A DNA stretch of 64,000 nucleotides from Nocardioides marmoribigeumensis. Lineage in GTDB: Bacteria; Actinomycetota; Actinomycetes; Propionibacteriales; Nocardioidaceae. Numbering within the stretch: position 1 is the first letter of the stretch; each line of letters begins with the position of its first letter. The stretch lies in assembly GCF_031458325.1 (NCBI RefSeq), contig NZ_JAVDYG010000001.1, forward strand, positions 4,154,001-4,218,000, written 5' to 3'. A program made the position numbers and the translations under genes. Positions 47,451-50,303 of this stretch are shown in pieces. The notes beneath the pieces were generated by a model. It was not told the origin of the DNA and did no database searches. It worked only from the letters and a program-made list of their open reading frames with translations.

Positions 47451-47999
47451 ATGACGATCGTGACGACCCTGCCATGGAGTAGGCCGCTCACCGCGGCCGA
47501 TCTCGAGCTGATGCCCGATGACGGGCACCGCTACGAGCTGCTCGACGGGGCCCTGATCGTGACGCCGTCCCCGGTCCCTCGGCACCAGCTCGCCTCGAGC
47601 CGGCTCCAAGGGCTCCTCATCGCCGCCTGTCCGGATGACCTCGTCGTGCTGTCCGCGCCGTGCGACGTGGTGCTGGCCGACGACACCGTGCTGCAGCCCG
47701 ATCTGCTCGTGACAGATCGGGCGTCGGTCGTGGCGAACCGCAAGGTCACGGCACCGGTCCTGGTGGTCGAGATCCTCTCGCCCAGCACGCGGATGCTCGA
47801 CCTCCACACCAAGCGCGCCCGCTTCGAGCTCAGCGGCATCGCGTCCTACTGGGTCGTCGACCCGACGACCCCGTCACTCACCGCCTGGGAGCTCCGCGAC
47901 GGCGCCTACGCCCAGGTGGCTCACGCCGAGGCCGACGAGCCTTGGACCGCGACCGCGCCCTACGGGCTCACGGTCACCGCAGCGGAACTGCTCCGCTGA
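47451..47999 (+). CDS. Uma2-family (DUF820) PD-(D/E)XK endonuclease-like protein
   Basis: 182 residues. Uma2 pattern: LELMPDDGHRYELLDGALIV opening, catalytic D in VLQPDLLVTD, E in VLVVEILSPST and K in HTKRARFEL, then YWVVDPTTPSLTAWELRDG. Uma2 proteins are widespread restriction-endonuclease-fold proteins of unclear role, frequently expanded in cyanobacteria and actinomycetes. Follows the preceding unknown gene by 12 bp, so the two probably act or move together. Confidence 0.9.
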   Translation: MTIVTTLPWSRPLTAADLELMPDDGHRYELLDGALIVTPSPVPRHQLASSRLQGLLIAACPDDLVVLSAPCDVVLADDTVLQPDLLVTDRASVVANRKVTAPVLVVEILSPSTRMLDLHTKRARFELSGIASYWVVDPTTPSLTAWELRDGAYAQVAHAEADEPWTATAPYGLTVTAAELLR

Positions 48000-48010
48000 C
48001 GCTCTCACTG

Positions 48011-48026
48011 GTGGACCTTGGTCCAC
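48011..48026 (+). terminator. Hairpin after the Uma2 gene
   Basis: GTGGAC-CTTG-GTCCAC, 12 bp after the Uma2 stop. Six-bp stem with a tetraloop, no T-tract. Confidence 0.4.
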
Positions 48027-48161
48027 GACAGGAGTAGGCCTTCTGTCTGCACCCCGGGTCTGCCGAGTCACTGCCAGGCTGACCGAGTCGCCCGTCTGGG
48101 ACGACCTGCCTGAGAGTTGCGGGGCTCGGTGGCCCGGGACGTGCAGATCGGCCATAGGGCT

Positions 48162-48265
48162 TTGCGCCAAGGCTTGCCGGCCTGGAGCGCCTCAGTGAGC
48201 GACCGACCGTCACGTCCCGGACCGGAGTGCTGAATCCGTGGGCTAGACGGAAGGAGAGCACTCAC
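48162..48265 (+). ncRNA. Candidate IS110 left-end bridge-RNA region
   Basis: 104 nt of non-coding DNA between the left core repeat and the transposase. It begins with a near-perfect stem-loop (arms near 48164-48173 and 48180-48190). IS110-family elements such as IS621 encode a structured bridge RNA here that pairs with target and donor. The segment is short compared with the 177-nt IS621 RNA, so the true boundary may be farther left or the RNA may differ. No target-pairing loop was identified. Confidence 0.35.
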
Positions 48266-49489
48266 ATGGAGGCTACGCCCGCACGAATCACCTTTGCCGG
48301 GATCGACTGGTCCTGGCAGCACCACGCGGTCTGCGTGATCGACGCGCAGGGTCACCGGCTCGAGGAAGCCACGCTCCCGCACTCGCGTTCCGGCCTGGCC
48401 AAGATCACCGCGCTGCTGCGCCGCCACGAGATCACGCAGGTCGGAATCGAACGTGGCGACGGACCGGTCGTCGAGCACCTCCTGCGCGAGGGGTTCGAGG
48501 TCGTCGTGATCTCCGCACGCCAGGTCAAGTCCCTGCGGGACCGCTATGGCTCGGCGGGCAACAAGGACGACCGCTTCGACGCCTTCGTCCTGGCCGACGC
48601 GCTGCGCACCGACGCCGGACGCTGGGCGATCGTGCGTCCCGATACCCCCGAGACGGTGGCACTTCGGATGCTGGTCCGCGCCCGCCAAGACCTGGTCGGG
48701 CACCGGATCGCGGTCCACAACCAGCTGCTCGCGGTGCTGCAGCACAACTTCCCCGGCGCGATCGGCCTGTTCAGCGGCCTCGACATCGCCATCAGCCTGG
48801 CGTTCCTGCGCCGCTTCCCCTCCGAGGCCAAAGCCGCCTGGCTCTCGCAGAGCCGGCTGGCGCACTGGCTCAAGGCCAACGCCTACTGCGGACGCCAGAC
48901 ACCCGCCGAGCTCGTGGCACATCTCCATGAGGCCGCGACCGGACGCGTCGATGGAGCAGCCGCTGAGGCGAGCGAGCTCATCGTCCTGACCCTGGTCGAG
49001 CTGCTCACCACCCTGCGACGCCAGCAGACCGCGCTCGAGACCCGGATCAAAGAAGCACTGCTCGCCCACCCCGACGGACCGATCTTCCAGTCCCTGCCCC
49101 GCTCCGGCACCGTCCGCGCCGCCACCCTGCTCGCCGAGATCGGCGACTGCCGGGCTCGCTTCCCCGACGCGGGCGCTCTGGCCGCCGCCGCCGGCGTCGC
49201 ACCCTCCACCCGGCAGTCCGGGACTTTCCGCAACGTGGGCTACCGACGCGGCTGCAACAAACACCTCCGCGACGCCCTCGTCGACTGGGCCCAGGACACC
49301 CCACGCGCCAACGCATGGGCCCGCGACACCTACGACCGCGCCCGCCAACGCGGCGCACGCCACCCCCACGCAGCACGGATCCTGGCCCAGGGCTGGACGC
49401 GGATCCTCTGGCGCTGCTGGACCGACCACCAGCCCTACAACCCCGACCTACACGGCCGCCTCAACGACCTCCAACACCAGGCCGCTTGA
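48266..49489 (+). CDS. IS110-family transposase (DEDD recombinase)
   Basis: 407 residues, full length and intact. N-terminal RuvC-like DEDD domain: D14 (GIDWSW), E62 (IERGDG), D102 and D105 (NKDDRFDAF), at positions very like those of IS621. C-terminal Tnp domain with catalytic Ser probably S318 in APSTRQSGTF, following LPRSGTVRAATLLAEIG. ATG 48266 has AAGGAG upstream. No frameshift or stop, so it may be active. Confidence 0.95.
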   Translation: MEATPARITFAGIDWSWQHHAVCVIDAQGHRLEEATLPHSRSGLAKITALLRRHEITQVGIERGDGPVVEHLLREGFEVVVISARQVKSLRDRYGSAGNKDDRFDAFVLADALRTDAGRWAIVRPDTPETVALRMLVRARQDLVGHRIAVHNQLLAVLQHNFPGAIGLFSGLDIAISLAFLRRFPSEAKAAWLSQSRLAHWLKANAYCGRQTPAELVAHLHEAATGRVDGAAAEASELIVLTLVELLTTLRRQQTALETRIKEALLAHPDGPIFQSLPRSGTVRAATLLAEIGDCRARFPDAGALAAAAGVAPSTRQSGTFRNVGYRRGCNKHLRDALVDWAQDTPRANAWARDTYDRARQRGARHPHAARILAQGWTRILWRCWTDHQPYNPDLHGRLNDLQHQAA

Positions 49490-49499
49490 CATAGGGCTC

Positions 49500-50303
49500 T
49501 CAGGCGCGCTCCTCCGCGATGCTGTTGCCGCCGTCGACGACCAGGCACTGCCCGGTGACGTAGCCCGCGGCGTCGCTGCACAGGAACCCGACCGCCCCCG
49601 CCACCTCGGCTGGCGTGCCGCTGCGTCCGGCCGGTGTGCGGAGGCCCTGCCTCGACTCGTCCTCGGTCTGGCTCCCGGTCGCGATCCAGCCCGGGGCGAC
49701 CGCGTTGACGGTGACGCCGTGGCTCGCGTGGTCGACGGCCAGCGAGCGGGTCAGGCCGACCAGGCCGGCCTTGGCCGCGGCGTACGCCGGGTCCTCGCGA
49801 ATGGCCATGACCGGCCCGGTCACCGAGGCGACGTTGACCACGCGACCCCACCCGCGTGCGGCCATCGGCGGCACGAACGCACGGCAGACCAGGAAGGCGG
49901 AGTCGAGGTTGCGGGACAGCGAGGCGCGCCACCGCTCGTGGGGGAAGGACCCCAGCGCACCGGACTCCGTGCCCGGGCCGTCCATCGCAGGCGCGGCGAG
50001 GCTGGTCATGCCGGCGTTGTTGACCAGGACGTCGACGCGGCCAAGGTCGTCCAGCACCTGTCGGGCGAGCGCGGCGACTGTCGTCTCGTCGGTGAGGTCG
50101 CCGACCGCGGCCCGCGCCTCGACCCCGAGGGCCCGCAGGTCCGCGGCCCGGTCGTGAGCGCGGTGGGTGGTCGCCCCGACCACGACGGTGGCACCGAGCC
50201 GTCCCAGCAGCGACGCCGTGGCGAACCCGATCCCGTCGGCCGCACCGGCACCGGTCACCACCGCGACACGTCCGTCGAGCGAGAGCTCGGGCGGGATGCT
50301 CAC
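49500..50303 (-). CDS. SDR-family oxidoreductase in the cyclopropane-synthase cluster
   Basis: 267 residues. Classical SDR: nucleotide site VVTGAGAADGIGFA, NNAG, catalytic S-Y-K (NVASVTG, YAAAKAGLVG), C-terminal SDAAGYVTGQCLVVDGG resembling FabG-type 3-oxoacyl reductases. GTG 50303 overlaps the DUF1295 stop as GTGA, so the cfa-like, DUF1295 and SDR genes are coupled. Its stop codon lies 2 bp from the IS110 core repeat. Confidence 0.9.
   Translation of the reverse strand: MSIPPELSLDGRVAVVTGAGAADGIGFATASLLGRLGATVVVGATTHRAHDRAADLRALGVEARAAVGDLTDETTVAALARQVLDDLGRVDVLVNNAGMTSLAAPAMDGPGTESGALGSFPHERWRASLSRNLDSAFLVCRAFVPPMAARGWGRVVNVASVTGPVMAIREDPAYAAAKAGLVGLTRSLAVDHASHGVTVNAVAPGWIATGSQTEDESRQGLRTPAGRSGTPAEVAGAVGFLCSDAAGYVTGQCLVVDGGNSIAEERA

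What the first reader, a model, noticed from the sequence alone, without database searches (positions are those of the whole stretch)
48153..49498. Intact IS110 element with 9-bp core repeats and a short left end
Catalytic residues D14, E62, D102, D105 and a C-terminal RQSG serine are present, and CATAGGGCT bounds both sides. The known mechanism uses a bridge RNA from the non-coding end; here only about 104 nt is available, so either the RNA is smaller than IS621's or the boundaries are wider. The insertion stops 2 bp from a stop codon, hinting at a specific target.
Basis: partly seen in the sequence, partly recalled or inferred. Interest (0 to 1): 0.55.

Follow-up and report, generated by a model that had tools for sequence, protein, structure and literature searches.

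The report
Jumping gene aimed at facing stop codons
This is a mobile DNA element whose own guide RNA appears to steer it into the tiny gap where two neighbouring genes end facing each other, so that it can insert without breaking either gene; the guide-RNA mechanism is known, but this choice of target looks new.

Summary
The element is real, intact and present in 4 near-identical copies in its genome, but its left end was misplaced. The four copies share an unbroken block from 48004 to 49500, so the left non-coding end is 262 nt, not 104 nt, and holds a bridge RNA of ordinary size. The inner CATAGGGCT (48153) is not the boundary: it is the left donor guide inside that RNA, matching the element's right end. 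All guides known from IS621 can be placed. The right target guide and the handshake guide co-vary with target or donor DNA in 59 elements; the left target guide does so more weakly. The stop-codon hint was right: 17 of 17 distinct sites with both flanks held lie between the TGA of one gene and the TGA of a convergent neighbour, against 3 of 57 control sites. Both target guides contain the word TGA. More distant relatives sit at ATGAG/GTGAG gene starts instead, and the stop-targeting elements form one clade nested among them. I read this as an IS110-group element of known mechanism with an apparently undescribed target class. Not shown: RNA expression, transposition, and how far selection rather than pairing fixes the left side of the site.

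The parts
48004..49500 (+). Whole element including both CT core copies (1493 bp between the cores); ambiguity of about 2 bp because CTCA is shared by donor and target
   Evidence: 4 genomic copies share exactly this block; same ends in close relatives
48004..48265 (+). Left non-coding end (262 nt)
48004..48005 (.). Left copy of core dinucleotide CT (GT in the G505 element)
48042..48224 (+). Predicted bridge RNA body: target-binding loop then donor-binding loop (183 nt aligned; true 5' and 3' ends unknown)
   Evidence: 57-sequence consensus, 28 pairs, 18 with at least one sequence changed on both sides; single-sequence fold z -2.66 for 48030-48265
48078..48084 (+). Left target guide GCTGACC (holds TGA)
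   Evidence: 6-nt stretch from 48079, 52 matches seen, 45.0 expected, 0 of 500 shuffles as high, 14 elements
48108..48114 (+). Right target guide GCCTGAG (pairs with CTCAGGC, holds TGA)
   Evidence: 52, 53, 59 of 59 at target +6, +5, +4 against 33, 26, 23 expected
48115..48116 (+). Handshake guide of the target loop, AG (pairs with donor CT before the core)
   Evidence: 58 of 59 and 34 of 59 against 32.2 and 18.9 expected
48153..48161 (+).
   Evidence: identical to right end 49490-49498; T/C position follows the right end in 59 of 59 elements
48193..48199 (+). Right donor guide CAGTGAG (pairs with CTCACTG at the left end)
   Evidence: exact 7-nt complement of the left end in 56 of 59 elements
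48131..48223 (+). Donor-binding loop stem (arms 48131-48151 and 48203-48223)
48266..49489 (+). IS110-family transposase/recombinase, 407 aa
   Evidence: Pfam PF01548 and PF02371; NCBIfam NF033542 188 bits, cut-off 140
49486..49491 (+). TTGACA, candidate -35 of a promoter formed when the ends join (candidate -10 GACCTT at 48014-48019, 17 nt on); overlaps the transposase stop codon
   Evidence: TTGACA in 57 of 59 elements; spacing; consensus scan finds no sigma-70 site in the linear sequence
49490..49498 (+). Right end CATAGGGCT (left donor)
49499..49500 (.). Right copy of core dinucleotide CT
47997..47999 (+). Stop codon TGA of the left gene (Uma2-family, 47451-47999)
49500..49502 (-). Stop codon (TCA on +) of the right, convergent gene (SDR oxidoreductase)

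Best explanation
An intact IS110-group insertion sequence, 48004-49500, whose left end encodes a bridge RNA. Shown: the ends, the copy number, the fold with compensatory changes, and the co-variation of the right target guide, donor guides and handshake guide with target or donor DNA. Shown more weakly: the left target guide. Inferred from IS621: the ends join into a circle, TTGACA in the right end drives the RNA, and the RNA bound to the DEDD recombinase pairs its donor loop with the joined ends (TAGGGCT-CT-CACTG) and its target loop with a site of the form CTGAnn-CT-CAGGC, exchanging strands at the CT core. Because the target guides contain TGA and the complement of TCA, the sites picked are places where two convergent genes end within a few bases of each other; both stop codons survive the insertion.
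For: Ends: 4 copies; the same ends in close relatives. A different core, GT, in the G505 element with matching changes in the right target guide (GGCTGAC), right donor guide (CAGTGAC) and both ends. Guides. Fold. Targets: 17 of 17 distinct sites with both flanks held have a forward ORF (at least 152 codons) ending in TGA 4-9 nt before the core and a reverse ORF (at least 100 codons) ending at the TCA of the core; 28 of the 34 flanking ORFs hit Pfam at E 1e-5 or better (27 above the Pfam cut-off), and at 12 of 17 sites both do. Control: 3 of 57 CTCAG sites in the window. Own-genome census: CTGACN{0,4}CTCAG occurs 41 times against 16 for the reversed pattern, and 21 of the 41 are convergent-stop junctions by ORF length. 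An uninterrupted homologous junction exists in a congener, G445. Clade.
Against: The distance from TGA to core is 5 nt in 10 of 17 sites but 4, 6, 6, 6, 7, 8 or 9 in the others, so a rigid 7-nt left pairing cannot hold everywhere. The left guide's core positions (GA) do not pair with CT, unlike IS621. 17 of 17 exceeds the 21 of 41 unoccupied guide-like sites (Fisher p 0.0002), so part of the pattern may be loss of harmful insertions. One left-only site (L219) has TAG 11 nt away, not TGA. The right target guide is not among the top diagonals within the stop clade alone (n=14), where it hardly varies; its support comes mostly from the start clade. The shuffles do not keep relatedness. No RNA or transposition data.
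Confidence: 0.85

Rival explanations
1. The element is guided only loosely (right target guide plus core) and lands in many CTCAG sites; insertions that broke genes were lost, leaving those at convergent gene ends.
For: 17 of 17 exceeds the 21 of 41 seen at unoccupied guide-like sites. The spacing of the left TGA varies from 4 to 9 nt.
Against: The left guide carries CTGA throughout the 14 stop-clade elements, and the base after TGA follows the target (TGAC, TGAG, TGAA, 0 of 500 shuffles as high). Insertions in non-essential genes should survive, and none was seen among 17 sites. Convergent stops are 3 of 57 CTCAG sites.
Confidence: 0.12
2. One reading: the element runs from the inner CATAGGGCT (48153) to 49498, with an unusually small RNA.
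For: The 9-bp repeat exists.
Against: In 4 copies the sequence left of 48153 is identical for 149 nt more. Relatives share the outer end.
Confidence: 0.01
3. The block 48004-48152 is an unrelated repeat next to which the element inserts.
For: None found.
Against: It holds both target guides and the target-loop stem, co-varies with the target, and lies in the same place in 59 elements.
Confidence: 0.01

Closest known systems
IS621 (IS110 group), bridge RNA system (PMC11208160: outline, abstract, sections 6 and 12 and passages read; PMC11208158: passages read)
   Same: DEDD plus Tnp-domain recombinase with alignable catalytic residues; long left end with target loop then donor loop; CT core; left guides sense, right guides antisense; handshake bases after each right guide; -35-like TTGACA in the right end
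   Different: Core not paired by the left target guide; right donor guide pairs without a break; target is convergent stop codons, not REP elements; 407 aa against 328 in the solved IS621 chain
seekRNA of IS1111 and IS110 type elements (PMC11187229, passages read)
   Same: Non-coding-region RNA that selects the target; upstream of the transposase gene in the IS110 type
   Different: No stop codon mentioned in that paper's main text (term count 0); their RNAs are shorter (74 nt for ISEc21)
IS900 of Mycobacterium avium subsp. paratuberculosis (title of Doran 1997 seen in the reference list of PMC8141618; passages of PMC8141618 read)
   Same: IS110 family (family assignment recalled); rarely breaks genes; reported to target translation initiation signals, as the start-clade relatives here do
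   Different: IS900 targets starts, this element stops; IS900 sequence was not compared here
REP-targeting IS110 elements (ISPa11, ISPpu9, ISPpu10, ISRm19; PMC1525189 passages read)
   Same: Sequence-specific insertion into REP elements, which often lie between convergent genes
   Different: They recognise a palindromic repeat; here the stop codons themselves are in the guide
TIGR-Tas endonucleases (PMC12045711, search listing only)
   Same: Weak similarity in the C-terminal half (NF052498, 55 bits)
   Different: Below the curated cut-off of 100

Membership tests
IS110 family, IS110 group | DEDD RuvC-like domain plus Tnp domain with conserved serine | tested here: met
IS110 family, IS110 group | Long non-coding left end holding a two-loop bridge RNA | tested here: met
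   262-nt left end; consensus fold
IS110 family, IS110 group | Guides complementary to target and donor | tested here: met
   left target guide weaker than the rest
IS110 family, IS110 group | CT-type core shared by donor and target | tested here: met
IS110 family, IS110 group | Circular intermediate with RNA transcribed across the junction | not testable with these tools
   Only promoter-like TTGACA with a weak -10
IS1111 group | Bridge RNA in a long right end | tested here: not met
   9 nt between stop codon and right core
IS1111 group | Sub-terminal inverted repeats of 7-17 bp | tested here: not met
   longest exact match in the terminal 40 nt is 6 nt
TIGR-Tas | NCBIfam NF052498 at its cut-off | tested here: not met
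   55.4 bits against 100
IS900-like start targeting | Insertion at a translation start | tested here: not met
   window clade is at convergent stops; relatives in the start clade do meet it in part

The most novel reading that the evidence does not exclude
An actinobacterial IS110 lineage whose guide RNAs read gene punctuation. Most members are guided to ATGAG/GTGAG, often the stop/start overlap of two genes in an operon; on insertion they leave the upstream stop intact and replace the start codon of the downstream gene with their own outward-facing ribosome-binding site and GTGAG, so both genes stay readable. The window's clade arose from these by guide changes, moved to convergent stop codons and mostly lost the outward ribosome-binding site.
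Probability: 0.5. Interest if true: 0.75.

Novelty: new variant of a known kind. Interest (0 to 1): 0.55.

Why it matters
It shows how an RNA-guided mobile element can find harmless places in many genomes by writing the stop codon into its guide, and gives a natural series (start-targeting relatives, stop-targeting clade, CT and GT cores) for testing how bridge RNAs are retargeted and which parts of the pairing matter. Recombinases that insert between genes without a genome-specific address would also be useful tools.

Tried and rejected
Rfam: no bridge RNA family matched 47800-49700, only a chance microRNA hit. phmmer with the single protein found only chance hits to designed barrels; a profile found IS621 and ISCro4. 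Plasmid collection: 11 of 72,556 records match, none over 80% of the element. Empty site for the window copy: congeners G446 and G447 align well only on the right-hand gene, so they do not decide it; the one clear uninterrupted junction is for the copy in L011, in G445. A second uninterrupted candidate, L184, aligned poorly and is not used. Core taken as the first CT of CTCTCA: rejected, because most copies lack it on the left and the handshake guide fits the second.

Rows dropped: of 80 loci, 67 were put through the end-finding script; 13 were left out (L016, L069-L071, L077, L080, L082, L083, L086, L089, L090, L092, L093), mostly truncated; L016 was looked at. With the window and 3 loci, 71 were aligned and 59 gave both junctions; that step required a core of [CG]TC[AG], so matches at target 0 to +3 are partly by selection, while +4 to +6 are not. 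In one search the left end was mis-picked for L028, L034, L035 and L041; searches replaced it. One search counted 13 of 16 sites because three lacked flank (L096, L176, L181) and L085 was skipped; settled these. The double right end in G240 contains an N and is probably an assembly join. Shuffles do not keep relatedness.

Literature: ten searches found no paper describing IS110 targeting of convergent stop codons; ISfinder and subscription journals could not be searched. Passages of PMC2516522 were read for this and gave nothing.

Full report
The finding names an intact IS110 element at 48153-49498 bounded by CATAGGGCT. The transposase is as described: 407 aa, both Pfam domains, the NCBIfam IS110 model above its cut-off, D14, E62, D102, D105 and S318 in place and conserved in an alignment of 16 family members, and a profile that aligns with the solved IS621 and ISCro4 transposases.

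The left boundary is wrong. The genome (4,440,796 bases, one contig) holds four copies that differ from the window copy at 4 to 8 positions in 1499. Laid side by side they are identical from CTCACTGG at 48004 through the left end, and their flanks diverge to the left of that point and to the right of CTCAG at 49499. The left non-coding end is therefore 262 nt. Close relatives at 80-83% protein identity have the same two ends.

The left end reads as a bridge RNA. An alignment of 57 sequences gives two stem-loops with 28 pairs, 18 of them with at least one sequence changed on both sides; the window's own RNA folds better than shuffles (z -2.66). The inner CATAGGGCT sits in the 5' side of the second loop, where IS621 has its left donor guide. 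Its T/C base follows the right end in 59 of 59 elements, and the segment CAGTGAG on the other side of that loop is the exact complement of the left end in 56 of 59.

The target guides lie in the first loop. In 59 elements with both junctions, the bases at 48108-48114 match the right side of the target in antisense: 52, 53 and 59 of 59 at target positions +6, +5, +4, where shuffled pairs give 33, 26 and 23. The next base, 48115, matches the donor base before the core in 58 of 59 (32.2 expected); this is the handshake guide described for IS621 (PMC11208158, passages read). The left target guide is weaker but above every shuffle in both clades: in the window's clade the base after TGA changes together in guide and target (TGAC, TGAG, TGAA). 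Within that clade alone the right guide varies too little to stand out.

The core is CT within CTCA. The G505 element settles this: it has GTCA at both ends and in the target, with the matching change in both right guides.

The targets are places where two convergent genes end. Of 17 distinct sites with both flanks held, 17 have a forward ORF of at least 152 codons ending in TGA 4-9 nt before the core and a reverse ORF of at least 100 codons ending at the TCA that overlaps the core. Of the 34 ORFs, 28 match Pfam at E 1e-5 or better, one of these below its Pfam cut-off; at 12 of 17 sites both do. Neighbours include a family A DNA polymerase and a prolipoprotein diacylglyceryl transferase. Of six further sites with only the left flank, five have TGA 4-8 nt away and one has TAG 11 nt away. 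By the same kind of ORF test, 3 of 57 CTCAG sites in the window qualify. Both stop codons are outside the element or restored by the core, so neither gene changes length.

Guide sequence alone goes far towards this. CTGACN{0,4}CTCAG occurs 41 times in the genome against 16 for the reversed pattern, and 21 of 41 are convergent-stop junctions; 14 of 20 with a gap of 0-2 and 7 of 21 with a gap of 3-4. The step from 21 of 41 to 17 of 17 (p 0.0002) suggests that selection, or extra recognition, also acts. The TGA lies 5 nt from the core in 10 of 17 sites and 4 to 9 nt in the others, which a rigid left pairing does not explain.

Relatives mostly at 49-57% protein identity behave differently. In 40 of 45 the site is [AG]TGAG on the minus strand, a start codon; in 19 of 45 an upstream ORF ends at that TGA and the downstream ORF is open, against 9 of 179 such words in the window. 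The left end then places its own GTGAG or ATGAG before the gene, and 30 of 45 carry a ribosome-binding-like word 4-12 nt before it, against 3 of 14 in the stop clade. In a quick tree the 12 stop-clade proteins form one side of a branch (SH-aLRT 100) nested among start-type elements; that tree has some long branches that may be frameshifted or broken copies. Start targeting has a precedent in IS900 (title of Doran 1997, seen in the reference list of PMC8141618).

Ordinary parts: an IS110-group element with a bridge RNA is known. New, as far as ten searches of an open-access library show: guides that carry stop-codon words and place the element between convergent stops. Nothing here shows RNA expression or movement.

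Noticed in passing
45 start-clade relatives, e.g. L030, L032, L048, L061: Inserted at ATGAG/GTGAG gene starts, often stop/start overlaps of operon genes; their left end supplies GTGAG and, in 30 of 45, a ribosome-binding-like word facing outward.
   Followed up: partly
   Followed up: yes
59 elements; window 48014-48019 and 49486-49491: TTGACA in the right end (57 of 59) with NANNNT-like words 17-19 nt on in the left end once joined, a promoter-like junction with a weak -10.
   Followed up: partly
window 48011-48024: Near-palindrome TGGACCTTGGTCCA just inside the left end, unexplained.
   Followed up: no
L018 and L085 (Amycolatopsis) beside Nocardioides and Aeromicrobium loci: Elements of the window's clade occur in Pseudonocardiaceae as well as Nocardioidaceae, which suggests horizontal spread.
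   Followed up: no
   Followed up: no
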